Below are positions 15,316-30,503 of a DNA stretch of 46,765 nucleotides, piece by piece. The DNA is from an uncultured Sphingomonas sp. (GTDB taxonomy: Bacteria; Pseudomonadota; Alphaproteobacteria; Sphingomonadales; Sphingomonadaceae). The stretch spans positions 1 to 46,765 of the forward strand of contig CAJYIX010000039.1 of assembly GCA_913775315.1 (NCBI GenBank), read 5' to 3'. The position numbers and the translations under genes were made by a program. The notes beneath the pieces are model-generated. The model saw nothing but the letters and a program-made list of their open reading frames with translations, searched no databases and was not told where the DNA came from. The stretch's first letter is position 1. Each line of letters opens with the position of its first letter.

Positions 15316-17742
15316 ATGATGAAGAAGACTGCCGCAGCCGCGCTGTCCGCGCTGCTCGCCACCACCGCCCTTGCTCAGGATGCGGGCACGCAGGGCGTCG
15401 CACATCCGCAAGCGTGGCCGACCGCCAAGAGCCAGGGTCTGATCGACGCCGCGACCGAGGCGAAGATCACCGCGCTGATGGCGAAGATGACGCTGGAGGA
15501 AAAGGTCGGGCAGATGATCCAAGCCGATATCGGCGCGATCAAGCCCGAGGATTTGCGGCAGTATCCGCTCGGCTCGATCCTCGCGGGCGGCAGCTCGCCG
15601 CCGCTCGGCAAGCCCGATCGTTCGCCGGGCGCCGACTGGGCCGCGACCGGCCGCGCGTTCGACGCGGTGGCGATGGAGAAGCGCGCCGGCCATACCGCGA
15701 TCCCGCTGATCTTCGGGGTCGATGCCGTCCATGGCAACAACAACGTCGTCGGCGCCACCCTCTTCCCGCACAATATCGCGCTCGGCGCGGCGCACGACCC
15801 CGACCTCATCCGCCGCATCGGCGACGCGACAGCGAAGGAAACTGCCGCCGCCGGCATCACCTGGGCATTCGGCCCGACGCTGGCGGTGCCGCAGGACGAC
15901 CGCTGGGGCCGGACGTACGAGGGCTATTCGGAGGATCCGGCCCTGGTGCGCAGCTATGCCGCGCCGATGATCGAGGGGCTTCAGGGCACACCCGGCCGCG
16001 GCCGCATCCAGGACGGGCACGTGGCGGCGAGCGCCAAGCACTTCCTGGGTGACGGCGGGACCAAAGATGGCATCGATCAGGGCAATGACGAGATCGACGA
16101 GAAGACGCTGATCGGCATCCATTCGGCCGGCTACCCGCCCGCGATCGATGCCGGCACGATGACGGTCATGGCCTCGTACAGCTCGTGGCAGGGCAAGAAG
16201 ATGCACGGCAACAAGAGCCTGCTGACCGACGTGCTCAAGGGGCGGATGGGCTTTGCCGGGTTCGTCGTCGGCGACTGGAACGGCCATGGCCAGATCCCCG
16301 GTTGTACCAAGGAGGATTGCGCCGCGACCTTCAACGCCGGGCTCGACATGGCGATGGCGCCGGATAGCTGGAAGGGCCTGTTCGACAATACGGTCCGCCA
16401 GGCGCGCAGCGGCGTGATCCCGATGGCGCGCATCGACGATGCGGTCCGCCGCATCCTGCGCGTGAAGTTCAAGCTCGGCCTTTTCGACGCGGCACGCCCG
16501 TACGAGAATCGCGCCGGCGTGATCGGCAGCGCCGCCCACCGCGCGATCGCGCGCGAGGCGGTGCGCAAGTCGCTGATCCTCCTCAAGAACGACGGCGTGC
16601 TGCCGCTCAAGGCGTCGGCGCGCATCCTCGTCGCCGGTAGCCATGCCGACGACGTGGGCCTTCAGGCGGGCGGCTGGACGCTGAGCTGGCAGGGCGACGG
16701 CAACAAGCCCGCCGACTTCCCCAACGCCCAGTCGATCTATTCCGGCATTGCCGAGGCGGTGAGGAAGGGCGGCGGCACCACCGAGCTGAACCTCGATGGT
16801 CGGTTCACGACCAAGCCCGACGTGGCGGTCGTCGTGTTTGGCGAGATGCCCTATGCCGAGATGCGCGGCGACATCCGCACGCTTGAGTTCCAGGCGGGCG
16901 ACAAGCAGGCACTGGCGACGCTCAAGCGGCTAAAGGCGGCGGGTATCCCAGTCGTCTCGGTGTTCCTTTCGGGCCGCCCGCTCTGGGTGAACCCGGAGCT
17001 CAACCAGTCGGACGCGTTCGTCGCCGCGTGGCTGCCGGGGTCGGAGGGCGGCGGGATCGCCGACGTGCTGGTGGGGGATGCCGCGGGCAAGCCGCGCACA
17101 GACTTCACCGGGCGGCTGTCCTATAGCTGGCCCAAGACCGCGGGGCAGTTCACGCTCAACAAGGGGACGCCCGGCTACGACCCGCTCTTCGCGCTCGGCT
17201 ATGGCCTGTCCTATGCCAAGCCCGGCCGCGTGCCCAAGCTCGGCGAAGTCGCAGGTATCGACGCGAGCCTTGCCAACACAAGCCTGTTCTACACGCTCGG
17301 CCGCACCCCCGCGCCGTTCGCGTGGAAGCTGGACGGCGTGACGGCGCAGGCGGTGGACTCGGCGCGGACGCAGGAGGGCGCATCGCTCCTCACCTTCGCG
17401 CGCGGCAAGCCGGGAACGGCACGCATTGCCGGCCCGCAGCTCGACCTGACGCGCGAGACCAATGCCGACGTGCTGCTCCAGCTTCAGTACAAGGTCGAGA
17501 CGGCGCCTGCCGGCCCGGTCCGTCTGTCGCTGGGCAGCGGGAGCGTCAATGCCGCGAGCCTGTTCACCGGGGGCTCCGGGTGGAAGACCGCGCGCGTGCC
17601 GCTCAAATGCTTCGCGGCGGCCGGGGGCGACATGGCGAAGGTCGACGTGCCGCTGGCGCTGTCGGCGACCGGGCCGTTCGCGGTGGCGATCGCCGATGCG
17701 CGGCTTGTCACCGACCCAGAGGGCGCGGTCTGTCCGAAGTAA
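15316..17742 (+). CDS. GH3 exo-acting beta-glucosidase / beta-xylosidase with ExoP-type C-terminal domain
   Basis: This exported enzyme removes terminal sugars from beta-glucan or xylo-oligomers. Residues 1-21 form a Sec signal peptide ending ATTALAQ. The GH3 N-terminal barrel has KHF (241-243) and the nucleophile Asp320 in GFVVGDWNGHG. The second alpha/beta domain includes KSLILLKNDGVLPLK, and the Glu of GEMPYAEMRGD fits the acid/base loop. The last 150 or so residues form a beta-rich module like the ExoP C-terminal galactose-binding domain. At 808 residues it is typical of ExoP-type enzymes. A GGGGGA site lies before ATGATG. It ends at a bidirectional terminator shared with the receptor gene. 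Confidence 0.95.
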   Translation: MMKKTAAAALSALLATTALAQDAGTQGVAHPQAWPTAKSQGLIDAATEAKITALMAKMTLEEKVGQMIQADIGAIKPEDLRQYPLGSILAGGSSPPLGKPDRSPGADWAATGRAFDAVAMEKRAGHTAIPLIFGVDAVHGNNNVVGATLFPHNIALGAAHDPDLIRRIGDATAKETAAAGITWAFGPTLAVPQDDRWGRTYEGYSEDPALVRSYAAPMIEGLQGTPGRGRIQDGHVAASAKHFLGDGGTKDGIDQGNDEIDEKTLIGIHSAGYPPAIDAGTMTVMASYSSWQGKKMHGNKSLLTDVLKGRMGFAGFVVGDWNGHGQIPGCTKEDCAATFNAGLDMAMAPDSWKGLFDNTVRQARSGVIPMARIDDAVRRILRVKFKLGLFDAARPYENRAGVIGSAAHRAIAREAVRKSLILLKNDGVLPLKASARILVAGSHADDVGLQAGGWTLSWQGDGNKPADFPNAQSIYSGIAEAVRKGGGTTELNLDGRFTTKPDVAVVVFGEMPYAEMRGDIRTLEFQAGDKQALATLKRLKAAGIPVVSVFLSGRPLWVNPELNQSDAFVAAWLPGSEGGGIADVLVGDAAGKPRTDFTGRLSYSWPKTAGQFTLNKGTPGYDPLFALGYGLSYAKPGRVPKLGEVAGIDASLANTSLFYTLGRTPAPFAWKLDGVTAQAVDSARTQEGASLLTFARGKPGTARIAGPQLDLTRETNADVLLQLQYKVETAPAGPVRLSLGSGSVNAASLFTGGSGWKTARVPLKCFAAAGGDMAKVDVPLALSATGPFAVAIADARLVTDPEGAVCPK

Positions 17743-17922: not shown

Positions 17923-20900
17923 TTAGAAATTGCCGCGCAGGATGAACGAGAAGCGACGGTCGTTGATGAAGTAGGACCGCGGCGCCAGCTGATCGGGATT
18001 GCCCGTGTACGCCTGAAGCGTGCGGGTCGATTCGTTGGTCAGGTTCACGCCCTGGACGCCGATCTTGATGTACTTGTTGAGGTTGATGAACGCCGACGCG
18101 TCGAGCTGGCCCGTCTCGTCATTGTAGATCGACGTGTACGGGAAGATCACGTCGGCCGCCGTCAGCAGGAAGCGCGAGCGCCAATTATACGCCGCGCGCA
18201 GCGACACCGGCCCCTTCTCGTAGAATACCGTCGCGTTGACGTTATGCTTCGACAGCCCCTCCAGCGGCAGGTTACCCGGCGTGATCGGCGATGAATTCGA
18301 CGGCGTGCCCCCGTTCAGGAACGAATTGGGCAGGCCTTGGCTCTCGATATACGAATAGTTGCCGTTGAAGCCGAGGCCGCTCAGCAAGCCGGGCAGGAAG
18401 TCGAACGTCTGCTGGTACGAAACCTCGACGCCCTTGATCTTGCCGGTCCCGTCGAAGTTGGCGGGACCGCGGATCAGCACCGGGATGGTCACGCCATTGC
18501 TGGTGATGTTGCGGGTGATGAGCGACGAATAGAAGAAGTTGTCGACCGCCTTGTAGAAGCCGTTGACGGTGATCGACCCGACCCGCGCGAAATACCATTC
18601 GAGCGTCGCGTCGAACTGCCAGGCGGTCGCGGGCTTCAGGAACGGATTGCCCGCCGTCGCAGTGGCGGCACCCGAGTTGGGGTCGGTGGTCACGCCGATG
18701 AAGTTGCGGATGTTCGCAAGGTCGGGGCGCGTCAGCACCTTCGACACCGCGAACCGGGCGACGAGATCGCGTGACAGGCCGAGCTTCAGGTTGAAGCTGG
18801 GCAGGAAGTAATCATAGTCGTTGCGCGCCACGTCGCTGACCGTCTGGCCGGTCGCGAATTGCTGGAGCTGAGCATAGGCTGCAGCACCCAGATTACAGAT
18901 GCCGCCCGGCCGCGACGGCGGGGTGCCCGCCGGCGCGCCATCCGGCACGCGCGGATCGCAGCGTCCCGTGAAGATCGTCTGGCCGGTGACCGGATCGATC
19001 GCCGTCCGGGTGAAGGGATCGACGATCCCCAGCGCCTCCCGTGTCGGCACGCCGATCCGCCCCTCGGAGCGGATGTTCGTCGAGACGTAGCGGACGCCGA
19101 TATTGCCCGACAGGCGGATGTTGCCGAACAGCGGATCGTCGGACCCGAAGTTCAGCATGGCATAGGCCGCCGCATCCTGCTGGTTCACCGGCTGGATTTC
19201 ATCGGGCAGATAGGGCGAGCCGGGGATCGCGTTCGGCCGCTCGTTGGCGGGCACCCAGCGGTTGGTCGCGGTGGCGCCGTTCGTGCCGCGCCAGATGTCG
19301 TTCTGCGCCTTGAAGAACGTCGCCGACCCCTGATAATCGTTGATGAGGTCGCCGTTATAGTAATAGCCGCCGACCGGTCCCGGCGTTGCACCGCGGAAGA
19401 AGTTCGGGAACGCGAAGAAGTCCGACTTCGAGGTGTCGCCCTGGTTGAACGTCACCGGCGCGCCCGACCAGACTTCGCTGATCGCGCCCCAGTTATAGGC
19501 TGAATACTTCACCGTCTGGTTGCGCTCCGAATAGCGCGCGCCGAACTTGACGCGGTTCAGGAACGAACCGTCGTCGAACTTGTACGTGAAGTCGCCCTTG
19601 ATCTGATACTCGGACCCGCGCGAATCCTCGAGGTGATCCATCGCCGCGCGCCAGAACTGGAAATCGCGGTTCTGGAAGTACTGTGCGTCGCTGGCCGCGA
19701 CCATCGCGGGATTCGGCGTCGCCCAGCTTGCCGCCAGCGTCAGCGGCTTGTGCGGGATGACGACCGGGGTGTTGCCCGTCAGGTCGAGCTCCTGGTCGGC
19801 AAAGGTCGAGCCGAACACGCTGACGTCGAGGTTCTCACGACGCGCATAGGTATAGTCAACGTCGAGGTTCATCGACAGCTTTTCGGTCAGCTCGTGCTTC
19901 AGGTTGAAGCCGAAGTCCCGAACCTCGTTTTCCTCGAAGACCTGGCGACGCGACAGCGACTGCTGAATGCCGCCGGTGGGGACGGTCGTGGTCGCCGATC
20001 CGCTGGATGCCGAGCGCCAGCCGGTGCCCGGCAGCGTGATGTATCCCTTCTGGAACAGGCCGTCGTCACCGAACACATAGTTGCGGGTGGTGCCGGTCGG
20101 GCATTCCGCGCGCGTGCCGCCATTCGCCCCATTGGTGTTCTGCTGGCAGCCATAGGGATAGGTGTTGTATTCGGAAAGGTCGGGCGCGCTCTCGAAGGTG
20201 TGCTCGCCCCAGGCGTTGGTCGAGTGCGAGCGCAGGAACTGCGCCGCGATCTGGGTGCGCTTGTCGGTGCTTTCCCACTGGAGCGCCAGCGCTTGCCCGT
20301 CACGCTTGCGATCGAAGTCCTGGGTACGGAACTGGCCTCCGATCGGGGCATAGAGCGGACCCCGTGCCTGATCGAGCAGGCCATCGGCACCGGTGGGCGT
20401 CCCGCCGAAGCCGCACGTGCCCGCCGGGGGCAGGCCCTGCGTATCGCCGGTGCCGGGCAGCGGGTTGCGGCACTGGATGCCGCCGCCGTTGGCGCCCTGC
20501 GCGCTGCCGCCGTCACGCGTCTGGATGTTGGTGATCTGGATGCCGTCGGCGCGGCTCTTGATCCGCGAATAAGACAGGTTGGCGAGAATGCCGAACGTAC
20601 CGATTCCCGTCTCGAACGTGTCGCTGACGAGGAGCGAGGCAGTCGGCGTCCACTTCTTGCGGAAGTCGCCGTAATTGGCCTCGACGCCGCCGCCGATGTG
20701 GAAGCCGCGATTGTCGAACGGCTTGCGCGTGTTGAGGTTGACCGTGCCGGCCAGACCGCCCTCGATCAGGTCGGCGGTCGCGTTCTTGTAAATCTCGACC
20801 GATCCGAGCAGCTCGGACGGCACGTCGGCGAAATTGAGCGCCTGGCCGCCGATGCCCGCCGCGAACGCGCTGCGGCCGTTGAACTCGGAGCGGACGAAGT

Positions 20901-21390
20901 TGAGGCCGCGCACGACGACTCCCGAACCTTCGACCGAGAAGTGGTCGGGATCGTTCGATCCGGCGAAGCGGTTGATCGAGACGCCCGGCACGCGCTGAAG
21001 CGCCTCGGTCACCGAACGATCGGGCAGCGCGCCGATGTCCTGCGCGGTGATCGCGTCGACGACCGTGTCGGCGTTGCGCTTGATGCTCTGCGCGTTGGCC
21101 AGGCTCTGGCGGATGCCGGTAACGACGATGTCTTCGGGCGAACTCTGGTCAGAGGCCGACTGGCCGGCGGGATTATCGGCGGTCGGCGTCGTGGTCGCCC
21201 CGTCCTGCGGCTGGGCGGCCGGAGTCGCGCTTCCCGCGGTCCCCTGGCCGGAAGCGGCACCCGTTTGCGCGAATGCCGGGGTTGCGAGCGCAAAGGTGCA
21301 CACCGCGCCGACCGAAACGCCACACTTCAACAACTTGCCGATTTCGCGCGTCTTGTTACCGCGCAGCGTTTCAGAGCCAGTAATGGCCAT
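17923..21390 (-). CDS. TonB-dependent outer membrane receptor, carbohydrate-locus type
   Basis: This is a 1155-residue outer membrane transporter powered by TonB. A long signal region ends near ALATPAFAQ (about residue 42). A Gly/Pro/Thr-rich linker follows, then the TonB box and plug (SPEDIVVTGIRQSLANAQSI, ALPDRSVTEALQRVPGVSI, VVVRGLNFVRSEFNGR, EGGLAGTVNLNTRKPF). The C-terminal barrel ends in the usual aromatic residue (FSFILRGNF). The size exceeds siderophore receptors (about 700) and fits oligosaccharide receptors of Caulobacter and sphingomonads. A GGGGGGAGAGGA site precedes the ATG. It is divergent from the halogenase operon and convergent with GH10-GH3; oligosaccharide import is inferred from that context. 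Confidence 0.96.
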   Translation of the reverse strand: MAITGSETLRGNKTREIGKLLKCGVSVGAVCTFALATPAFAQTGAASGQGTAGSATPAAQPQDGATTTPTADNPAGQSASDQSSPEDIVVTGIRQSLANAQSIKRNADTVVDAITAQDIGALPDRSVTEALQRVPGVSINRFAGSNDPDHFSVEGSGVVVRGLNFVRSEFNGRSAFAAGIGGQALNFADVPSELLGSVEIYKNATADLIEGGLAGTVNLNTRKPFDNRGFHIGGGVEANYGDFRKKWTPTASLLVSDTFETGIGTFGILANLSYSRIKSRADGIQITNIQTRDGGSAQGANGGGIQCRNPLPGTGDTQGLPPAGTCGFGGTPTGADGLLDQARGPLYAPIGGQFRTQDFDRKRDGQALALQWESTDKRTQIAAQFLRSHSTNAWGEHTFESAPDLSEYNTYPYGCQQNTNGANGGTRAECPTGTTRNYVFGDDGLFQKGYITLPGTGWRSASSGSATTTVPTGGIQQSLSRRQVFEENEVRDFGFNLKHELTEKLSMNLDVDYTYARRENLDVSVFGSTFADQELDLTGNTPVVIPHKPLTLAASWATPNPAMVAASDAQYFQNRDFQFWRAAMDHLEDSRGSEYQIKGDFTYKFDDGSFLNRVKFGARYSERNQTVKYSAYNWGAISEVWSGAPVTFNQGDTSKSDFFAFPNFFRGATPGPVGGYYYNGDLINDYQGSATFFKAQNDIWRGTNGATATNRWVPANERPNAIPGSPYLPDEIQPVNQQDAAAYAMLNFGSDDPLFGNIRLSGNIGVRYVSTNIRSEGRIGVPTREALGIVDPFTRTAIDPVTGQTIFTGRCDPRVPDGAPAGTPPSRPGGICNLGAAAYAQLQQFATGQTVSDVARNDYDYFLPSFNLKLGLSRDLVARFAVSKVLTRPDLANIRNFIGVTTDPNSGAATATAGNPFLKPATAWQFDATLEWYFARVGSITVNGFYKAVDNFFYSSLITRNITSNGVTIPVLIRGPANFDGTGKIKGVEVSYQQTFDFLPGLLSGLGFNGNYSYIESQGLPNSFLNGGTPSNSSPITPGNLPLEGLSKHNVNATVFYEKGPVSLRAAYNWRSRFLLTAADVIFPYTSIYNDETGQLDASAFINLNKYIKIGVQGVNLTNESTRTLQAYTGNPDQLAPRSYFINDRRFSFILRGNF

Positions 21391-21623: not shown

Positions 21624-23135
21624 ATGACGGACTGGCGCGCACAGCGGGTCGTGATCGTGGGGGGCGGCACATCGGGTTGGATGGCGGCGGCGGCACTTGC
21701 ACGCCTGCTGCCGAAACGCTGCTCGATCCACCTCGTCGAATCGGAAGCGATCGGCATCGTCGGCGTGGGCGAGGCGACGCTGCCGCACATCCGCCACTTC
21801 AACGAACGGCTGGGGATCGCGGAGGCCGATTTCATGCGCTGGACCCGCGCGACGTTCAAACTCGGCATCGAGTTTCGCGACTGGGGGCGGGTCGGCGACA
21901 GCTATGTCCACCCGTTCGGCACGTTCGGCCGGGGGACGGGCGAGGTCGATTTTCACCACTATTGGACGCGCGCCCGGCTGGAGGGGCGCGACGTGCCGCC
22001 GCTCGAGCAATTCTCGGTCGCGTGCATGATGGCGCGGATGGGCAAGTTCGCGCCGCCCGGCGATCCCGCGAGCCTCGCCGGCACCTTCGGCTATGCCTAT
22101 CAGTTCGACGCCGTGCTCTTCGCCCCCTATCTGCGCGCCATCGCGGAGGGGATGGGCGCGATGCGGACCGAGGGGCGCGTGGTCGACGTCGAGCTCGACG
22201 GGACCAGCGGCGATATCCGCGCGATCCTGCTCGAAGGGGGCAAGCGGATCGAGGGCGATCTGTTCGTCGACTGCTCCGGCTTTCGCTCGCTCCTCCTGGG
22301 CGAGGCGCTCGGCGAGCCGTTCCAGGACTGGTCGCGCTGGCTGCCCGCGGACCGCGCGGCGGCGATGCCGTGCCGGACACGCACCGACGTGACGCCCTAT
22401 ACCAGCGCGATCGCGATGCCCGCGGGCTGGCGCTGGCGCATCCCGCTCCAGCACCGCACCGGCAACGGCTATGTCTATTCGAGCGCGTTCGTGTCGGACG
22501 ACGAGGCCGCATCCGCGATCGAGGCGGCGGTCGAGGGCGAGCCGATGGCCTCCCCCCGCCTCCTCCGTTTCCGCGCGGGGCGGCGCGAGCGCAGCTGGGT
22601 GTGCAACTGCGTCGCGGTCGGGCTGGCGAGCGGGTTCCTGGAGCCGCTCGAGTCGACGAGCATCTACCTCGTCCAGCAGGCGATCACCGCGCTGGTCGAG
22701 CTGTGGCCGGAGAACGATATCGCCGATGCCGACCGGGACGAGTTCAACCGGATCATCGACCTCGAATACGACCGCATCCGCGACTTTCTGATCCTCCATT
22801 ACCACGCGACCGAGCGCGACGATTCGGACTTTTGGAACTACGTCCGCACCATGCCGATCCCCGACAGCCTCGCCGAGAAGATCGAGCTGTTCCGCCGACG
22901 GGGGCGCGTCGTGAAGTATCGCGAGGGCGTGTTCCTCGATGCCAGCTGGGTCGCTGTCTATCTCGGCCAGCGCGTGGTGCCGGAGGGATTCGATCCGCGC
23001 GCCGCCCTGCCCCCGCAAGCCGATTTGCTGCGCAGCATGAGCGCGCTTCGCGACGAGGTTTCGACAACCGCCGCGGCGATGCCGGGGCATCTCGACTTCA
23101 TTCACCGCTATTGCCCGATGGCGGAAGCGGCGTGA
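21624..23135 (+). CDS. tryptophan-halogenase-family flavoprotein 1, catalytic residues intact
   Basis: Flavin-dependent halogenases use FADH2, O2 and halide to make HOX, which a Lys guides onto indoles or other aromatics. The FAD motif is GGGTSGWM (13-20) and the second FAD site GVGEAT (47-52). The catalytic Lys is Lys79 in TFKLGIEF. The family motif WRWRIP is at 269-274. Glu343-Ser344-Thr345 in EPLESTSI give the catalytic Glu and chloride site. At 503 residues it is normal. It is first of six genes; its stop overlaps gene 2 by 4 bp. The substrate is unknown: relatives in sugar loci are annotated by homology only. Confidence 0.93.
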   Translation: MTDWRAQRVVIVGGGTSGWMAAAALARLLPKRCSIHLVESEAIGIVGVGEATLPHIRHFNERLGIAEADFMRWTRATFKLGIEFRDWGRVGDSYVHPFGTFGRGTGEVDFHHYWTRARLEGRDVPPLEQFSVACMMARMGKFAPPGDPASLAGTFGYAYQFDAVLFAPYLRAIAEGMGAMRTEGRVVDVELDGTSGDIRAILLEGGKRIEGDLFVDCSGFRSLLLGEALGEPFQDWSRWLPADRAAAMPCRTRTDVTPYTSAIAMPAGWRWRIPLQHRTGNGYVYSSAFVSDDEAASAIEAAVEGEPMASPRLLRFRAGRRERSWVCNCVAVGLASGFLEPLESTSIYLVQQAITALVELWPENDIADADRDEFNRIIDLEYDRIRDFLILHYHATERDDSDFWNYVRTMPIPDSLAEKIELFRRRGRVVKYREGVFLDASWVAVYLGQRVVPEGFDPRAALPPQADLLRSMSALRDEVSTTAAAMPGHLDFIHRYCPMAEAA

Positions 23136-24556
23136 GCAGCGGGCCGATGCGGTCGGTCGTCGTCGCGGGCGGCGGCATCACCGGCTGGGCGGCGGCGGCG
23201 GCGCTCAAGCGGCGGCTGCCGCATCTCGACGTCACGATCCTGCCGCTCACGCCGCCCGAGGACGCCTTTGCCGACCGGCTGCCGGCAACGCTGCCGTCGG
23301 TGCTCGCCTTTCACGGCGACCTCGGCCTGTCGGAAGCGGACGCCATCGTCCGCACGCGCGCGGCGTTCAGGCTGGGAACTCGCTTCGTCGGCTGGGCAGA
23401 GGGGCTGCCCGACTATGTCCACAGCTATGGCGCGCACGGGCAGGCGATCGCGGGGTCGGCCTTTCACCAGCACTGGCTTCGCACCGGCGACGCGCCGTTC
23501 GATCGCTACGCCCCCGCCGCAGCGCTGGGGCGGCAGGGGCGCTTCCTGCTACCCGGCGAGCCGCCCGTTGACGGGTATGAGTACGGCCTCGTCCTCGACC
23601 TGTCCGCTCAGACCGCGATGCTGCGTGCCTTTGCCCGGCACCTCGGCGTGCGAGAGGCGGTGAGCAAACTGAGAAGCGTGCGTCACCGCGTGGACGGCTG
23701 CGTCGAGGCGATCGAGACCGAAGCCGGGCCGCTTGTCGCCGACCTGTTCGTCGATGCGACCGGCCCCGACGCGACGCTACGCTCGGCGGTCGGGGGAGAC
23801 CGCACCGACTGGCAACGCTGGCTTCCCTGCGACCGGCTGGCGATCGATGCAGCACCGACGACCGCCCCGCCCGCCTCGCTCGATATGGTCGAGGCCATCG
23901 ACGCGGGCTGGCGCTTCCGTATCGAGGGCGCCGTGCAGACCACGACCGGCACCTGCTGGTCGAGCGCGCATAACCCGCGTGGTGACGGCATCGGCTTTGC
24001 CGCGGGCAGCCATGCCGAGCCCTGGTCGAAGAACGTCGTCGCGATCGGCGACGCGGCCACCGTCGTCGAGCCGCTAGAATGGACCAACCTGCATCTGGCG
24101 CTCAGCGGCATCGACCGGCTGGTGACGATGATGCCCGATCGCGACTGCGCGCCAGTCGAGATCGCCGAGTTCAACCGGCAGGCGCGCGACGAGGCGACGC
24201 GGGTGCGCGACTTCCTCCTCCTCCACTATGTCACCGCACGCCGGCCCGATCCGTTCTGGTGCGACATGGCGGCGATCGAGCCGCCCGACACACTTGCCCA
24301 TACGCTGACCCAGTTTACCGAGCGCGGCCGCCTTCCCTTCTATGAGGAGGAGACGTTCGCGCGCGATTCGTGGCTCGCGGTGCTGATCGGTCAGGGCGTG
24401 CGCCCGCGCCGGATCGACCCGATGGTCGAGGCGATCGATCCCGCACCGATCGCGGCCGGCATGGCCCGCCACCGCGAGGCCTTGGCCGCCGCCGCCGGCC
24501 GCGCGCCCACCCATGCCGCCTTTCTCCAGGCGCTCCACCGACAGGTCCTTTCATGA
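23132..24556 (+). CDS. tryptophan-halogenase-family flavoprotein 2, degenerate active site
   Basis: The same fold as its neighbours but altered at each key site. The first FAD motif is kept (AGGGITGWA, 12-20). The GVGEAT loop is replaced by FADRLPATLP. The catalytic Lys position is Arg80 (AAFRLGTRF). The WRWRIP motif reads WRFRIE (260-265). The EST triad reads Glu316-Trp317-Thr318 (EPLEWTNL). At 474 residues it is slightly short. It should bind FAD, but halogenation by the standard route is unlikely. The GTG at 23132 overlaps the upstream stop (GTGA); an ATG at 23147 is an alternative. The reading frame is intact and coupled on both sides, so it is not a decaying pseudogene. Confidence 0.9.
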   Translation: MSSGPMRSVVVAGGGITGWAAAAALKRRLPHLDVTILPLTPPEDAFADRLPATLPSVLAFHGDLGLSEADAIVRTRAAFRLGTRFVGWAEGLPDYVHSYGAHGQAIAGSAFHQHWLRTGDAPFDRYAPAAALGRQGRFLLPGEPPVDGYEYGLVLDLSAQTAMLRAFARHLGVREAVSKLRSVRHRVDGCVEAIETEAGPLVADLFVDATGPDATLRSAVGGDRTDWQRWLPCDRLAIDAAPTTAPPASLDMVEAIDAGWRFRIEGAVQTTTGTCWSSAHNPRGDGIGFAAGSHAEPWSKNVVAIGDAATVVEPLEWTNLHLALSGIDRLVTMMPDRDCAPVEIAEFNRQARDEATRVRDFLLLHYVTARRPDPFWCDMAAIEPPDTLAHTLTQFTERGRLPFYEEETFARDSWLAVLIGQGVRPRRIDPMVEAIDPAPIAAGMARHREALAAAAGRAPTHAAFLQALHRQVLS

Positions 24557-26148
24557 ACGAGCATACCATCCGCAACGTCGTCATCGTCGGCGGCGGCACC
24601 GCCGGCTGGATGGCGGCGGCGGCGTTCTCGCGCTTTCTCGCCAACGGCGTCACGCGGATCACGCTGGTCGAATCGGACGAGATCGGCACCGTGGGCGTGG
24701 GCGAGGCGACGATCCCGCCGATCCTCACCTTCAACCGGATGCTCGGCATCGACGAGGGCGAGTTCCTTCGCGAAACCGCGGGCACGTTCAAGCTGGGCAT
24801 CGAGTTCGTGGACTGGGGTGGCCTCGGCGAGCGCTATTTCCACCCGTTCGGCTTCCACGGCCGCGACCTTCAAGGCGTGCATTTCCACCAGCTCTGGCTG
24901 CGCGAGCGGGCGCGCCGGCCGATCCCCGATATCTCCGCCTGGTCGATGAGCGCGGTCGCCGCCGCCGCGGGCAAGTTCGGCCGCCCCGCCCCCGACGCGC
25001 AGTCGGCGATCAAGGACCTGCTCTACGCCTTCCATTTCGATGCCGGCCGCTATGCCGCGTTCCTGCGCCGCTATGCCGAGCGCGGCGGTGTCACCCGGAT
25101 CGAAGGGAAGGTCGAGCACGTCGAAACCCGGCCCGCCGACGGCCATGTCGCGTCGGTGACCCTCGCGGACGGCCAGCGGATCGAGGGCGACCTGTTCGTC
25201 GACTGCTCGGGCTTTCGCGGGCTCTTGATCGAGGAGGCGCTCGGCACCGGGTACGACGACTGGACTCGCTGGCTGCCTGCCGATCGCGCCGTCGCGGTCC
25301 CCTGCGCGCTGCCGGCCGAGCCCGATCCCTTCACGCGCGCCACCGCCCGCGGGTCGGGCTGGCAATGGCGCATCCCGCTGCAGCACCGGATGGGCAACGG
25401 CCTCGTCTATTCGAGCCGGTTCATCGACGACGACGCGGCGGAGGCCGAACTGCTGGCGAACCTCGAGGGCGAGCCACTTGCCGACCCGCGCCGCATCCGC
25501 TTCACCACCGGGCGGCGGCGGCAGTGCTGGAACCGGAACGTCGTCGCATTGGGCCTGTCGAGCGGGTTCATCGAGCCGCTCGAATCCACCTCGATCCACT
25601 TCATCCAGTCCGGCATCGCGCGGCTGATCGCGCTGTTCCCCGACCTGCGTTTCGATCCGATCGAGCGCGATGAATATAACCGCCAGATGCGCGACCTCTA
25701 TGAGGACGTGCGCGATTTCGTGGTGCTGCATTACAAGGCGACGCGGCGCAGCGACACGGCCTTCTGGAACCACTGCCGCACGATGGACGTGCCCGAGAGC
25801 CTCCAACGCAAGATAGACCTGTTCCGCGCCAAGGGCCGCTTGTTCCGCGAGGGGCAGGAGCTGTTTGCGACGACCAGTTGGGTTGCCGTATGCCTCGGCC
25901 AGCATATCGTGCCCGAAACGCACGAGCCCGCCGCCGACGCCCTGGACGAGGAGAAGGTCGCCGCCGCGCTGGCGCAGATGTACGAGGAATATCAAGCCGT
26001 GGCCCAGCGCCTGCCCACCCATGCCGAGTTCATCGCGAAAAGCGGTGCCGCTTCCCCGCTCGCCGCGCCGAAGCCCGTCGAACCCGCGCTCCCGACCTTC
26101 TCGTTCGAGAACGAGACGCCGTTCGCCGACCGGAACTTCAGCCTGTGA
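24553..26148 (+). CDS. tryptophan-halogenase-family flavoprotein 3, catalytic residues intact
   Basis: At 531 residues it is the longest of the four. FAD motif GGGTAGWM (13-20), GVGEAT (48-53), catalytic Lys80 in TFKLGIEF, WQWRIPLQ and EPLESTSIHF are all present, so chemistry is probably retained. The C-terminus has an extra Pro/Ala-rich tail of about 30 residues ending FADRNFSL, not seen in the paralogues. The ATG at 24553 overlaps the upstream stop (ATGA), and its own stop overlaps the GTG of gene 4. It looks closest by eye to gene 4, which suggests local duplication. Confidence 0.93.
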   Translation: MNEHTIRNVVIVGGGTAGWMAAAAFSRFLANGVTRITLVESDEIGTVGVGEATIPPILTFNRMLGIDEGEFLRETAGTFKLGIEFVDWGGLGERYFHPFGFHGRDLQGVHFHQLWLRERARRPIPDISAWSMSAVAAAAGKFGRPAPDAQSAIKDLLYAFHFDAGRYAAFLRRYAERGGVTRIEGKVEHVETRPADGHVASVTLADGQRIEGDLFVDCSGFRGLLIEEALGTGYDDWTRWLPADRAVAVPCALPAEPDPFTRATARGSGWQWRIPLQHRMGNGLVYSSRFIDDDAAEAELLANLEGEPLADPRRIRFTTGRRRQCWNRNVVALGLSSGFIEPLESTSIHFIQSGIARLIALFPDLRFDPIERDEYNRQMRDLYEDVRDFVVLHYKATRRSDTAFWNHCRTMDVPESLQRKIDLFRAKGRLFREGQELFATTSWVAVCLGQHIVPETHEPAADALDEEKVAAALAQMYEEYQAVAQRLPTHAEFIAKSGAASPLAAPKPVEPALPTFSFENETPFADRNFSL

Positions 26149-27677
26149 GGGACGACGCGATCCGGAAGGTCGTGATCGTCGGCGGCGGCACCGCCGGGTG
26201 GATGACCGCGGCGGGCATCTCGCGTGTCGTCGGCGAACTGCCGGGCCTTCAGATCGAGCTCGTCGAATCCGAGGAGATCGGCACCGTCGGCGTCGGTGAG
26301 GCGACGATTCCGCAAATCTGCCTCTACAACGCGATGCTCGGCTTCGACGAGGCCGAGTTCGTGCGGGAAACGCACGCGACCTACAAGCTCGGCATCGAGT
26401 TCGTCGACTGGACGCGGATCGGCCACCGCTATGTCCACCCGTTCGGTTTCTACGGCATCGACATGGGCGGCATCCATTTCCACCATCACTGGCTGAAGGC
26501 GCGGATGCTGGGCGACCGCACGCCTCTGGATGCCTATTCATTGAGCTGCGTCGCGGGACAGGCGGGCAGGTTCGCGCATCCCCGCCCCGACCAGCCTAAT
26601 TCGCCGCTGTCGAAGATCGGCTACGCATTCCAGTTCGATGCCGCGCTCTATGCCCGCTATCTGCGCAAGCTCGCCGAACGCTGGGGCGTGACGCGTACCG
26701 AGGGGCGGATCGTCGACGTGCTGAAGGACGACGAGAGCGGCCACGTGACCGCCGTCGTCCTGGCCGACGGGCGGCGGGTCGAGGGCGAACTGTTCATCGA
26801 CTGCTCGGGCTTTCGCGGCCTGTTGATCGAGGGGGCGATGGGCGCGGGGTTCGAGGACTGGTCGAACTGGCTCCCCTGCGACCGCGCGCTGGCGGTGCCG
26901 TGCGAATCGAGCGGCGACCGCCTGCCGATCACGCGCGCCACCGCGCGCCCGGCGGGCTGGCAATGGCGCATCCCGCTCCAGCACCGCACCGGCAACGGAT
27001 ACGTCTATTCGAGCGCGCATGTATCGGATGACGAGGCGGCGGCGACGCTACTCGCCAATCTCGACGGCGCCCCGCTCGCCGAACCGCGCCCGCTCCGCTT
27101 CAAGGCGGGCCACCGGCGAGAGGCGTGGAAGGGCAATGTCGTGTCGCTGGGGCTGGCGGGCGGGTTCCTTGAACCGCTCGAATCGACGAGCATTCACCTC
27201 GTCCAGTCGGGCATCGCGCGGCTGATGACCTTGTGGCCGACTAGGGGGTTCGATCCGGTCGAGATTGCGCGGTTCAATGCCGAGACGGCGCAGGAATATG
27301 TCGACATCCGCGACTTCCTGATCCTCCATTACACCGCGACCGAGCGCGACGACACGCCCTTCTGGGACTATTGCCGCACGCTGACCCCGCCCGACGGCCT
27401 CGCCTACAAGCTCGACATGTTCCGGCGGAACGGCCGCATCTTTCGCGAGCATGAGGAACTGTTCACCGAAACGAGCTGGCTGTCGGTGATGGCGGGCCAG
27501 GGGATCGAGCCGCAGGGCTATCACCCCGTCGCCGACCTGTTGCCCGATACCGAGACGCTCGATCGCCTTAAGCACATCCGCGAGGTGGTGGCGCAGACCG
27601 CGGCGGCGATGCCCGACCACGAGGGGTTCCTGCGCCGCATCGGCTGCGACCTCACGCCGCTCCGGCGCGCGTCGTGA
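26145..27677 (+). CDS. tryptophan-halogenase-family flavoprotein 4, catalytic residues intact
   Basis: The 510-residue product has GGGTAGWM (13-20), GVGEAT (49-54), catalytic Lys81 in TYKLGIEF, WQWRIPLQ and EPLESTSIHL. The region RTGNGYVYSS is nearly the same as in paralogue 1. The GTG start at 26145 overlaps the upstream stop by 4 bp; the stop overlaps the GTG of the oxygenase gene in the same way. No flavin reductase, needed to supply FADH2, is encoded in the cluster, so a general cellular reductase would have to serve all copies. Confidence 0.93.
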   Translation: MRDDAIRKVVIVGGGTAGWMTAAGISRVVGELPGLQIELVESEEIGTVGVGEATIPQICLYNAMLGFDEAEFVRETHATYKLGIEFVDWTRIGHRYVHPFGFYGIDMGGIHFHHHWLKARMLGDRTPLDAYSLSCVAGQAGRFAHPRPDQPNSPLSKIGYAFQFDAALYARYLRKLAERWGVTRTEGRIVDVLKDDESGHVTAVVLADGRRVEGELFIDCSGFRGLLIEGAMGAGFEDWSNWLPCDRALAVPCESSGDRLPITRATARPAGWQWRIPLQHRTGNGYVYSSAHVSDDEAAATLLANLDGAPLAEPRPLRFKAGHRREAWKGNVVSLGLAGGFLEPLESTSIHLVQSGIARLMTLWPTRGFDPVEIARFNAETAQEYVDIRDFLILHYTATERDDTPFWDYCRTLTPPDGLAYKLDMFRRNGRIFREHEELFTETSWLSVMAGQGIEPQGYHPVADLLPDTETLDRLKHIREVVAQTAAAMPDHEGFLRRIGCDLTPLRRAS

Positions 27678-28699
27678 CCGCGCTGCCCCCGCCCGCGCCG
27701 ATCCGCGAAGTGACGGGGCTGACGCGCGCGATCTTCGATGCCGAGGTGCGTCCCGCCGGTGAGCCGGTCGTGATCCGCGGGCTGGGCGCCGACTGGCCGG
27801 TGGTGCGCGCCGCGCGCGAGGGGGACGCGGCGCTGATCGCCTATCTCAAGCGGTTCAGTCACGACCGGCCCGTCAACGCGATCGTCGGCACGCCGGAGAT
27901 CGAGGGGCGGTTCGGCTATACCGACGACCTCACCGCGCTCAATTTCAATCGCGGCCAGTCGCCGCTGGGTCCGTTCCTCGACCGCCTGCTTCGCGACCGC
28001 GAGCACCCCCGCCCTTATGCGATGGCGGTCCAGTCGATCCCCGCTTCGGAGCTAGTGCCGGGGTTCGAGCGCGAGAACGGGCACGATCTGGTCGACGCGT
28101 CGATCGTGCCGCGGCTGTGGCTGGGCAACGCGATCCGGGTGGCGACGCATTACGACTTGCAGGAAAATATCGGCGTCGTCGTCGCCGGTCGCCGGCGGTT
28201 CACGCTGTTCCCGCCCGATCAGGTCGCGAACCTCTATATGGGGCCGCTCGAACTGACGCCCGCTGGCACGCCCGTCAGCCTCGTCGATCCCGCCGCCCCC
28301 GACCTCGATCGTTTCCCGCGCTTTGCCGAGGCGGCAAAGACGGCGCGGACGGCGACCTTGGCGCCGGGCGACGCGATCTACATCCCCTTTCACTGGTGGC
28401 ACGCGGTCGATTCGCTGGGGTCGGTCAACATCCTGATGAACTGGTGGTGGAGCCCCGCCGCGAAGCCCCCCGCCGCGGCCTATGACGCACTGCTCCATTC
28501 GCTGCTCGCGCTCGGCTCGCTGCCAGACGACCAGCGCGCGGCGTGGCGGACGATGTTCGATCACCTCGTCTTCCGCCCCGATCGCGATCCGGCCGAGCAC
28601 CTGCCGGCCAATGTCCGCGGCGTACTTGGTGACATCGACGGCGAACTCGCTGCACGCATCCGATCGACGCTGGCGCACCAGCTTACCCAACCGACCTGA
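27674..28699 (+). CDS. JmjC/cupin_8-type Fe(II)/2-oxoglutarate oxygenase
   Basis: The 341-residue protein resembles FIH-type cupin-like oxygenases, which hydroxylate protein side chains or small molecules. The iron ligands are visible: His159 and Asp161 in ATHYDLQENI, and His243 in PFHWWHAVDS. The stretch AGRRRFTLFPP fits the 2-oxoglutarate-binding strand. GEPVVIRGLGADWPVV at 29-44 is the usual N-terminal signature. The GTG overlaps the stop of halogenase 4 by 4 bp. Such proteins recur beside TonB receptors and halogenase-like genes in sphingomonads (recalled). The substrate is unknown; a partner flavoprotein product or a surface protein are possibilities. Confidence 0.9.
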   Translation: MTALPPPAPIREVTGLTRAIFDAEVRPAGEPVVIRGLGADWPVVRAAREGDAALIAYLKRFSHDRPVNAIVGTPEIEGRFGYTDDLTALNFNRGQSPLGPFLDRLLRDREHPRPYAMAVQSIPASELVPGFERENGHDLVDASIVPRLWLGNAIRVATHYDLQENIGVVVAGRRRFTLFPPDQVANLYMGPLELTPAGTPVSLVDPAAPDLDRFPRFAEAAKTARTATLAPGDAIYIPFHWWHAVDSLGSVNILMNWWWSPAAKPPAAAYDALLHSLLALGSLPDDQRAAWRTMFDHLVFRPDRDPAEHLPANVRGVLGDIDGELAARIRSTLAHQLTQPT

Positions 28700-28712
28700 G
28701 GAGCGATTGCCG

Positions 28713-30503
28713 ATGAAGATGCTCGCGAGCGTCGCGCTGTTAGCGGTAGCTGCCCAAAGTCCGGCGCCCGCGATCCACCTCAGCCAGTTCGGCTTCCTGC
28801 CCGACGGGCCCAAGCGCGCGATCGTCGCCACCAACGGCGATGCCCCGCTCGATTGGCGCGTCGTCGATGCCGCGGGCAAGGTCGTCGCGAGCGGGCGCAC
28901 GCAGCCCGGCGGCGCGGACGAGGCTTCGGGCGACCGCGTCCAGATCGTCGATTTCGGCGCGCTGACGGCACCCGGCGACTACCGCCTTGCCGTTACCGGA
29001 GCCGAAAGCCGCCCCTTCGCGATCCGCCCCGGCTTGTACGGGCCGCTGGCCAAGGGCGCGCTCAACTTCTTCTATCAGCAGCGTGCCGGGGTGCCGATCG
29101 AGGCACGTTATGCCGGCGGCGAGCGGTGGGCGCGTCCCGCCGGGCATCCGCGCGAAGTGGCGACGTGCTTCAAGGGCGCGGACCCGCGCGGCACCGACTG
29201 GCCGGGCTGCGCCTATACGGTCGACGTGACCGGCGGCTGGTACGACGCGGGCGACCACGGCAAGTATGTCGTCAACGGCGGCATCGCGGTCTGGACGCTG
29301 TTGAACCTCCACGAAGTCATCGGCGCGTTCCCCGACAGGAGCGCCGCACTGCCGGAGGCGGGCAACGGCGTCTCCGACCTGCTCGACGAGGCGCGCTACG
29401 AGCTGGAGTTCCTGCTGAAGATGCAGGTGCCGGAGGGGACGCGGACGCCGCTGCCGGTTGGGCATCAGCGCGGCGGCGGGGCGATGAGCCTGACGATGGT
29501 CGATGCCGGCGGCATGGCGCATCACAAGATCGCCGACGCTAACTGGACGCCCCTGCCGATGCGGCCCGCCGACGACCGCGAGCCGCGGCTGCTTTATCCG
29601 CCGAGCACCGCGGCCACGCTCAACCTCGCCGCCGTCGCGGCGCAGGGGGCGCGGATCTGGGTGAAGATCGACCCGGCGTTCGCCGCGAAATGCCTTGACG
29701 CCGCCAAGCGCGCTTTTGCCGCGGCCGAACGCAATCCGGAGGTGTACGCGGCCACCGCCTTTACCGGCAGCGGCGGTTACGGCGACGGCGACGTCTCCGA
29801 CGAGTTCTTCTGGGCCGCAGCCGAATTGTTCGCGGTGACCGGCGACCCGGCCTATCGCGTCGCGCTCACCCGGTCCCCGCACTGGTCGGACACGCCCGAC
29901 CGCGAGCCGAGCTGGGGCGGCACCGCCACGCTCGGCACGATCACGCTGGCGACGCTGCCCGGTATCGACCCGGCGATCGGCAATCACGAGCGGGCGCGCG
30001 TCACCGCCCTCGCCGACCGTTTCCTCGCCGAGCGCGACCGGGCGGGCTATCGCCTGCCCTATGGCGGGGCGCGCTATCCGTGGGGATCGAACGGTGCGAT
30101 CCTCAACCGCGGGGTGGTGCTGGGCGCGGCGCACAAGCTCACGGGGGACGCGAAGTACCGGGCGGGGATGATCGACGCCGCCGACTATGTGCTCGGGCGC
30201 AACCCGATCGACCAGAGCTATGTCGCCGGCTTCGGGTGGAAGCCGCTGGCCAACCCGCATCACCGCTTCTGGGCGCCCAGCCTCGACCCGTCGCTGCCAG
30301 GCCCGCCGCCGGGTACGCTGTCGGGCGGCGCGAACAACACCGCCTTTGCCGACCCGGTCGCCAAGCAGAGCGAGGGCAAGTGCGCGGCGCAGCGTTGCTA
30401 TGCCGACGATGTGCGCGCCTTTGCCTGGAACGAGGTGGCGGTGAACTGGAACGCGCCGCTGGTGTGGGTGGCGGCCTATCTGGACCGCCCCGCCCCTCAG
30501 TGA
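28713..30503 (+). CDS. GH9 glycanase (endoglucanase / cellodextrinase type)
   Basis: This inverting enzyme hydrolyses beta-1,4-glucan or mixed-linkage chains. A short signal peptide (MKMLASVALLAVAAQS) is followed by an Ig-like N-terminal domain (about residues 20-105). The (alpha/alpha)6 barrel has the base Asp178 with Asp181 in GGWYDAGDHGKY, the NPHHR motif late in the protein, and the acid Glu at about 574 in WNEVAVNWN. At 596 residues it lacks a cellulose-binding module, which fits action on soluble oligomers. It starts 13 bp after the oxygenase stop with an AGGAG site, so it is the last gene of the halogenase operon and gives that operon its carbohydrate link. Confidence 0.94.
   Translation: MKMLASVALLAVAAQSPAPAIHLSQFGFLPDGPKRAIVATNGDAPLDWRVVDAAGKVVASGRTQPGGADEASGDRVQIVDFGALTAPGDYRLAVTGAESRPFAIRPGLYGPLAKGALNFFYQQRAGVPIEARYAGGERWARPAGHPREVATCFKGADPRGTDWPGCAYTVDVTGGWYDAGDHGKYVVNGGIAVWTLLNLHEVIGAFPDRSAALPEAGNGVSDLLDEARYELEFLLKMQVPEGTRTPLPVGHQRGGGAMSLTMVDAGGMAHHKIADANWTPLPMRPADDREPRLLYPPSTAATLNLAAVAAQGARIWVKIDPAFAAKCLDAAKRAFAAAERNPEVYAATAFTGSGGYGDGDVSDEFFWAAAELFAVTGDPAYRVALTRSPHWSDTPDREPSWGGTATLGTITLATLPGIDPAIGNHERARVTALADRFLAERDRAGYRLPYGGARYPWGSNGAILNRGVVLGAAHKLTGDAKYRAGMIDAADYVLGRNPIDQSYVAGFGWKPLANPHHRFWAPSLDPSLPGPPPGTLSGGANNTAFADPVAKQSEGKCAAQRCYADDVRAFAWNEVAVNWNAPLVWVAAYLDRPAPQ

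What the first reader, a model, noticed from the sequence alone, without database searches (positions are those of the whole stretch)
21624..30503. Four tandem halogenase-family flavoproteins plus a JmjC oxygenase and a GH9 glycanase in one tightly coupled operon
Five genes in a row overlap by exactly 4 bp (GTGA or ATGA), and the GH9 gene follows 13 bp later. Opposite lies a 1155-residue TonB-dependent receptor, with GH10 and GH3 enzymes beyond it. Three flavoproteins keep all halogenase catalytic residues. Such oxidative chemistry in a glycan-uptake locus has no obvious role: it may modify aromatic residues of the receptor or another surface protein, or phenolic decorations on xylan. The coupling suggests equal dosage, perhaps a complex. 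This is the best candidate for an undescribed system in the window.
Basis: partly seen in the sequence, partly recalled or inferred. Interest (0 to 1): 0.85.

Follow-up and report, generated by a model that had tools for sequence, protein, structure and literature searches.

The report
Halogenase cassette tied to sugar receptor
A Sphingomonas bacterium keeps three halogen-adding enzymes, one dead look-alike and a hydroxylase-like protein beside the outer-membrane gate for a plant sugar; similar pairings recur in its relatives, and the gate itself may be what the enzymes modify, which is not yet shown.

Summary
Observation confirmed: Hal1-Hal2-Hal3-Hal4-Cupin_8 with four 4-bp overlaps, GH9 13 bp on, a divergent 1155-aa TonB-dependent receptor (TBDR), GH3 and GH10 beyond. 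Not unique: this Sphingomonas genome has 12 PF04820 genes at seven sites, six beside a TBDR. In 15 genomes 68 of the 84 halogenase clusters my script saw have a TBDR within 4.5 kb; hand checks raise this to 74 of 85. Twice the pair has split, yet both halves persist and match the same intact loci. Hal2 is a conserved pseudohalogenase (catalytic Lys is Arg in 30/30 aligned copies; the 13 non-Lys proteins of 128 form one clade). GH9 is optional (18/31 loci). Best reading: a cytoplasmic cassette that modifies its cognate receptor before export. A candidate target, an invariant YNWGxxSExW loop, shows the largest raw enrichment of 2660 features (Trp in 70/103 linked, 20/128 unlinked receptors), seen again in new genera (18/25 vs 7/30), but fails phylogenetic correction. 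Modification is not shown. Such cassettes are already known in Xanthomonas (recalled); pseudohalogenase and loop candidate seem new.

The parts
21624..23135 (+). Hal1, BrvH-type flavin-dependent halogenase, all catalytic motifs
   Evidence: PF04820 610.9 bits; motifs
23132..24556 (+). Hal2, conserved pseudohalogenase (start GTG 23132 or ATG 23147)
   Evidence: PF04820 296.8 bits; catalytic Lys is Arg in 30/30 aligned copies, window included; AF2 pLDDT 92.5, nearest fold BrvH 6frl, TM 0.91
24553..26148 (+). Hal3, BrvH-type halogenase, all catalytic motifs
   Evidence: PF04820 664.9 bits; best solved relatives BrvH 6frl and Xcc4156 6y1w
26145..27677 (+). Hal4, BrvH-type halogenase, all catalytic motifs; optional in relatives
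   Evidence: PF04820 640.4 bits; called in 10 of 30 relative loci, L076 left out
27674..28699 (+). Cupin_8 / JmjC-like protein, probable Fe(II)/2OG oxygenase, nearest solved relatives FIH and JMJD5; optional in relatives
   Evidence: PF13621 206.9 bits; FIH E=1.8e-19; THYD and FHWWH read by eye in the translation; 15 of 31 relative loci
28713..30503 (+). GH9 glycanase with CelD_N domain; optional passenger
   Evidence: PF00759 307.2 bits; in 18 of 31 relative loci
17923..21390 (-). TonB-dependent receptor, TIGR01782 (TonB-Xanth-Caul) type, proposed client
   Evidence: 656.9 bits; divergent partner in 31 of 31 relative loci (in pieces in L076)
19462..19497 (-). codons of TBDR residues 632-643, YNWGAISEVWSG (W634, W641), candidate target loop
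   Evidence: position checked by translation; W634 and W641 invariant in 26 aligned orthologues; enriched in cassette-linked receptors
15316..17742 (+). GH3 enzyme of the same locus
   Evidence: PF00933 252.8 bits
14130..15287 (+). GH10 xylanase-family enzyme of the same locus
   Evidence: PF00331 271.2 bits
21526..21545 (.). imperfect 20-bp palindrome between the divergent genes, LacI-operator-like (likeness recalled)
   Evidence: 16 of 20 positions symmetric; a TTGC..GCAA-type pattern was found in 4 of 31 relative intergenic stretches, so not generally conserved

Best explanation
A receptor-dedicated modification cassette. Shown by sequence: Hal1, Hal3 and Hal4 are BrvH-type flavin-dependent halogenases with intact active-site motifs; Hal2 is a conserved pseudohalogenase predicted to have the same fold; the fifth protein resembles FIH/JMJD5-type oxygenases; related cassettes are kept beside, or in two genomes apart from but together with, a particular TBDR lineage. 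Inferred: the enzymes have no room for signal peptides (read by eye, no predictor run), so they act in the cytoplasm on the receptor's precursor, or another protein made with it, before export, halogenating (probably brominating, as BrvH and Xcc4156 do) one or two Trp residues of a surface loop; the oxygenase hydroxylates a nearby residue; Hal2 helps dock or pair the active enzymes. The modified loop would tune ligand capture or protect the receptor. Target and product are unproven.
For: Receptor linkage: 68 of 84 clusters by script; with five more added by hand and the one cluster the script missed, 74 of 85 (L116 by likeness only); 31 of 31 Hal2-selected loci. Split pairs: in G017 the lone receptor L206 and the lone Hal-Hal2-Hal set L115 are both sister to the intact locus L085 (support 100, and 0.98-1.0 for the three halogenases); in G022 the lone receptor L177 and the lone Hal-Cupin_8-SapC set L133 both group with L104/L142 (98 and 0.99). 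BrvH/Xcc4156: native substrates unknown, a peptide suggested (PMC7336383, passages). Loop Trp: largest raw enrichment of 2660 features, 70/103 vs 20/128; new genera and a second family 18/25 vs 7/30, Fisher p=0.0004, phylogeny ignored; 29/29 linked receptors with a Cupin_8 gene in the fetched region carry it vs 22/40 without; 12/12 pseudohalogenase loci have two or more vs 10/57. Cassettes occur with receptors of unlike glycan contexts (GH13, GH9/GH10, GH3), which argues against one shared small-molecule substrate.
Against: Tree-aware contrasts do not support the loop with all 231 receptors: 3.8 same vs 2.1 opposite of 13 pairs, sign test not significant. In smaller sets they lean its way without significance (4.1 vs 0.1 of 9 pairs; 3.9 vs 0.1), and it ranked seventh of 255 features, six others being higher. 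18 of 69 linked receptors, largely the GH13/maltose type, lack loop Trp. Of six unlinked receptors beside an identified GH gene two carry a loop Trp (L159, L164) and four do not (L156, L158, L187, L190), so a sugar-stacking role stays possible. 11 of 85 halogenase clusters have no TBDR within 4.5 kb. The receptor fold model is poor. No modification has been observed.
Confidence: 0.38

Rival explanations
1. The cassette modifies a small aromatic molecule tied to glycan uptake (imported phenolic decoration, signal or toxin); the receptor only brings it in. The loop Trp is an ordinary sugar-stacking residue.
For: Characterised FDHs act on free indoles and phenols; BrvH and Xcc4156 brominate indole derivatives (PMC5945002, PMC7336383, passages). 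Two of six GH-linked receptors without halogenase also have a loop Trp, and the loop signal fails phylogenetic correction.
Against: Cassettes serve receptors with unlike glycan contexts, GH13 loci included. No NRPS/PKS-type gene appeared among the 30 neighbour proteins run through Pfam; many neighbours were not annotated. A receptor lineage and its cassette stay together in the genome even when unlinked, though a ligand-processing role could also explain that.
Confidence: 0.3
2. The flavoproteins serve mainly as chaperones or maturation factors for the receptor (binding its Trp-containing loop), with Hal2 the extreme case.
For: Hal2 keeps the predicted fold but lacks the catalytic Lys in 30 of 30 aligned copies.
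Against: Hal1, Hal3 and Hal4 keep Lys, WxWxIP and EPLE in all 31, 31 and 11 aligned copies.
Confidence: 0.15
3. Hypohalous acid made by uncoupled halogenases is used for defence or competition near the feeding site, with no specific client.
For: Several active FDH copies in one genome and operons shared with feeding genes.
Against: A likely cytoplasmic place of action and pairing with particular receptor lineages fit poorly.
Confidence: 0.06
4. The neighbourhood is accidental.
For: 11 of 85 clusters have no TBDR within 4.5 kb, among them one lineage (C20 type) seen five times.
Against: 31 of 31 relative loci, 74 of 85 clusters, and two split pairs with matching phylogeny.
Confidence: 0.02

Closest known systems
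BrvH (Brevundimonas) and Xcc4156 (Xanthomonas) flavin-dependent halogenases
   Same: Best solved relatives of Hal3 by sequence (3.4e-167, 2.4e-161) and of Hal2 by fold; native substrate unknown, peptide suggested; brvH has a second halogenase gene beside it.
   Different: Here three intact copies, a pseudoenzyme and a Cupin_8 protein are coupled, with an identified receptor partner.
CUT loci (carbohydrate utilization loci containing TBDRs) of Xanthomonas, PMC1790865
   Same: TBDR plus glycoside hydrolases; reported conserved in Caulobacter, and some in Sphingomonas (passages).
   Different: The main text does not mention halogenases (0 hits); no inner-membrane sugar transporter or LacI regulator was recognised in the window, so at most a partial CUT locus.
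Xanthomonas GlcNAc (nix) cluster with Trp-halogenase, SapC and cupin genes
   Same: The own-genome locus L015 has TBDR-Hal-SapC-Cupin_8-Hal-LacI, much like the nix arrangement as I recall it.
   Different: Recalled only; the paper was not held. The window operon lacks SapC and LacI and has four PF04820 genes.
MibH-type peptide Trp halogenases
   Same: Halogenate a peptide (cited in PMC7336383, passage).
   Different: Xcc4156 is stated to be only 26% identical to MibH; here the proposed client is an outer-membrane protein.
FIH and JMJD5 (JmjC protein hydroxylases)
   Same: Nearest solved relatives of the Cupin_8 protein.
   Different: The FIH match covers residues 157-280 only; substrate untested.

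Membership tests
Flavin-dependent halogenase (Hal1, Hal3, Hal4) | PF04820 domain over curated cut-off | tested here: met
   611, 665 and 640 bits vs cut-off 21
Flavin-dependent halogenase (Hal1, Hal3, Hal4) | GxGxxG, catalytic Lys, WxWxIP, catalytic Glu motif | tested here: met
   present in the window copies; Lys, WxWxIP and EPLE in all aligned copies, GxGxxG wherever the gene call reaches it
Flavin-dependent halogenase (Hal1, Hal3, Hal4) | halide incorporation by the enzyme | not testable with these tools
   needs an assay
Active halogenase (Hal2) | catalytic Lys | tested here: not met
   Arg in 30 of 30 aligned copies, window included; Arg, Ser, Cys, Ala or Trp in the 13-member clade, some poorly aligned there
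Active halogenase (Hal2) | FDH fold | tested here: met
   AF2 pLDDT 92.5; 6frl TM 0.91; a prediction
Protein hydroxylase of the FIH/JMJD5 kind (Cupin_8 gene) | sequence homology to the catalytic domain with HxD...H iron ligands | tested here: met
   FIH 1.8e-19, JMJD5 3.3e-14; THYD and FHWWH read by eye in the translation
Protein hydroxylase of the FIH/JMJD5 kind (Cupin_8 gene) | hydroxylates a protein side chain | not testable with these tools
   needs an assay
CUT locus | TBDR beside glycan-degrading enzymes | tested here: met
   TBDR, GH9, GH10, GH3
CUT locus | inner-membrane sugar transporter and regulator in the locus | tested here: inconclusive
   none recognised, but only nine window proteins were run through Pfam
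Halogenase-SapC-cupin (nix-like) cassette | SapC gene in the cassette | tested here: not met
   not among the six operon genes; present in L015 of the same genome

The most novel reading that the evidence does not exclude
A widespread protein-modification system of Gram-negative bacteria in which BrvH-type halogenases, helped by a dedicated pseudohalogenase subunit and a FIH-like hydroxylase, brominate or chlorinate Trp residues in a surface loop of the outer-membrane sugar receptor encoded next to them: the missing native client of this halogenase class, and enzymatic halogenation of an outer-membrane protein before its export.
Probability: 0.27. Interest if true: 0.92.

Novelty: new variant of a known kind. 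Interest (0 to 1): 0.62.

Why it matters
BrvH-type halogenases have solved structures and biocatalytic interest, yet their native substrate is stated as unknown (PMC7336383, passage). Conserved and, in two cases, unlinked pairing with a specific receptor turns this into a direct question: purify the receptor and weigh its loop peptide. If the receptor is the client, bacteria chemically tune nutrient gates with halogens; if not, the data narrow the search to molecules handled with that receptor. A conserved pseudohalogenase is a testable new component either way.

Tried and rejected
GH9 as core member: rejected, present in 18 of 31 loci; only L049-L051 have both GH9 and Cupin_8 in the operon.

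Loop Trp as proof of modification: rejected as proof. Raw contrast is strong, but tree-aware pairs are few and with all 231 receptors give 3.8 same vs 2.1 opposite. In one search only the 60 features with the largest raw contrast were given the tree-aware test in the comparison; the ten shown at its head are not Trp. A column-wise link of Cupin_8 presence to receptor residues gave many hits that lineage may explain and was not pursued. Trp count did not strictly follow the number of active halogenases.

Shared operator: the window's palindrome is not generally conserved. Receptor structure: poor model (mean pLDDT 60.5, plug not folded), used only to note that residues 630-655 lie between long strands 611-629 and 732-749.

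Row handling: three receptor rows dropped (L106_11005 fragment, L089_1846, L141_14133) and seven relabelled as linked after I had seen the tree and read their gene order, before the residue scan; three Cupin_8/SapC-only receptors left out of the linked/unlinked comparison and counted as linked. The 80 further stretches were picked by hand from the truncated, score-ordered listing, not at random. Identical sequences were merged. L076 was left out of the Hal alignments. Halogenase fragments in G016 (C3) and G017 (C28, C32) were not fetched. Six own-genome or G010 repeats among the 30 phylum loci were dropped. Labels rest on about 1.5 kb of flank, so linked receptors may be miscalled as unlinked; these loci are best-scoring ones, not random. 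L116 was counted as linked by likeness to L108.

Papers: nine searches listed no title or abstract start on halogenation of a TBDR; only this open-licence library was searched. Passages were read in PMC1790865, PMC5945002, PMC7336383, PMC8269204, PMC12645471 and PMC7142613; the last three had no hit for TonB, TonB and halogenase respectively. No paper was read whole.
Full report
What is there. The window is from a Sphingomonas genome near S. yantingensis (locus L049, proteins 92-97% identical). Six genes run on the plus strand: Hal1, Hal2, Hal3, Hal4, a Cupin_8 protein and a GH9 enzyme. The first five share four 4-bp overlaps and GH9 starts 13 bp later; Hal2 may instead start 15 bp downstream, which would undo the first overlap. 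A TIGR01782 receptor of 1155 residues is divergent from Hal1, with GH3 and GH10 beyond it.

Not a lone oddity. The same genome has 12 PF04820 genes at seven sites. Six sites lie beside a TBDR, one (C20) does not. L015 has the order TBDR-Hal-SapC-Cupin_8-Hal-LacI; L013 has TBDR, Hal, a 2OG-FeII_Oxy_5 protein and LacI. In 14 further genus genomes (13 of 14 have PF04820) plus this one, my script saw 84 halogenase clusters and found a TBDR within 4.5 kb of 68. Pfam added L107, L108 and L093, likeness to L108 added L116, and listed coordinates added the second cluster of L099 and L127, an 85th cluster whose halogenase my gene caller missed. That makes 74 of 85, one of them untested. Of the other 11, three have a receptor 6.8-8.5 kb away and two (L115, L133) are the split sets below.

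The operon in relatives. A scan with Hal2 returned 31 loci: 29 records titled Sphingomonas, one labelled Arthrobacter and one alphaproteobacterial MAG. All 31 have the receptor divergent from Hal1, and Hal3 after Hal2 (in L052 my caller missed Hal2, which tblastn shows; L076 is in pieces). Hal4 is called in 10 of 30 (L076 left out), Cupin_8 downstream on the same strand in 15 of 31, GH9 in 18 of 31; only L049-L051 have both of these, and L064, with neither, is cut off by its contig end. The core is receptor plus Hal1-Hal2-Hal3; the rest varies. Neighbouring enzymes tested in relatives include GH31, GH1, GH43 and an acetylesterase, which suggests plant hemicellulose or beta-glucan as the nutrient (inference).

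A pseudohalogenase. Hal2 has Arg for the catalytic Lys in 30 of 30 aligned copies, ADR in place of VGV in nearly all, and a conserved EPLEW.NLH of its own. Of 128 distinct halogenases in 15 genomes 13 lack the Lys, and these 13 form one clade with local support 1.0. Each lies in a cluster with an active copy. The predicted fold is a confident FDH fold nearest BrvH. Retention without the catalytic Lys suggests a structural or docking role; that is inference.

Split pairs. Two receptors labelled unlinked sit inside linked receptor clades. In G017 receptor L206 is sister to the receptor of L085 (support 100), and each of the three genes of the receptor-less Hal-Hal2-Hal set L115 is sister to its counterpart in L085 (0.98-1.0). 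In G022 receptor L177 groups with L169, L104 and L142 (98), and the halogenase of the receptor-less Hal-Cupin_8-SapC set L133 groups with L104 and L142 (0.99). Keeping both halves after separation supports a functional tie beyond proximity.

What might be modified. The halogenases begin directly with the FAD fold, so they probably act in the cytoplasm, whereas the receptor is exported (read from the sequences; no predictor run). Comparing 69 linked and 80 unlinked receptors, the residue most enriched in linked ones, of 20 x 2393, was Trp at window residue 641 (36/69 vs 2/80), with W634 also enriched (22 vs 1). Both are invariant in 26 orthologues within YNWGxxSExWxG. The stretch lies between two long predicted strands, in such barrels usually the outer face (weak model; inference). 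Other linked clades carry other Trp motifs at the same place (NETWGG, LGDWG, VKWKAFDV). In 55 further receptors from other genera of the same family and from a second family, 18 of 25 cassette-linked and 7 of 30 unlinked ones have Trp there (Fisher p=0.0004, ignoring phylogeny). Against this, tree-aware pairing gives 4.1 same and 0.1 opposite of 9 pairs in the first set, 3.9 and 0.1 with 24 phylum receptors added, but 3.8 and 2.1 of 13 with all 231; none is significant, and several other features do as well or better. The association may reflect a few receptor lineages. A sugar-stacking role is open: of six unlinked receptors whose neighbour Pfam identified as a glycoside hydrolase, four lack and two have the Trp. 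The GH13 (maltose-type) linked receptors lack it.

Mechanism. I judge receptor-directed protein modification most likely (0.38), small-molecule modification next (0.30) and a chaperone-like role third (0.15). Passages on BrvH and Xcc4156 state that native substrates are unknown and that a peptide is conceivable (PMC5945002, PMC7336383). The Cupin_8 protein resembles protein hydroxylases, which fits a protein client.

Known or new. The halogenases are members of a known class, and halogenase-SapC-cupin cassettes beside TBDRs in Xanthomonas are, as I recall, described; I could not open those papers. In the listings of nine searches I saw nothing on the pseudohalogenase clade, the split pairs or the loop candidate.

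Noticed in passing
L018:8531-10051, L097:5275-6807, L122:8418-9959, L139:8753-10285, L147:8527-10050: A halogenase lineage without a TBDR within 4.5 kb, in five genomes, each with a gene of 454-456 aa close by (in L018 a Na/H-exchanger family protein); substrate unknown.
   Followed up: partly
L120 and L121 (G017 contig C16, 25704-27074 and 40505-41875): Mirror-image, equal-scoring copies of a TBDR-gene-halogenase set: recent inverted duplication or an assembly artefact.
   Followed up: no
L076 (Sphingomonas daechungensis NZ_CP060780.1): Receptor, Hal1 and Hal3 each appear as two pieces, suggesting decay or sequencing errors.
   Followed up: no
L068 (QDFQ01000001.1): Record named Arthrobacter sp. 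TPD3018 carries the Sphingomonas operon with the same gene order as L071 (S. aquatilis): probably mislabelled or contaminated.
   Followed up: no
L169, L213, L226: Receptors with adjacent SapC-Cupin_8 but no halogenase beside them; they still carry the loop Trp.
   Followed up: partly
L013:6396-7703: Halogenase beside a TBDR paired with a different oxygenase family (2OG-FeII_Oxy_5) and a LacI regulator.
   Followed up: no
L076 and L077, intergenic before Hal1: Palindromes TGTTAGCGCTAACA and GGTAGCGCTAACA, resembling the Caulobacter xylose-regulon box (likeness recalled).
   Followed up: no
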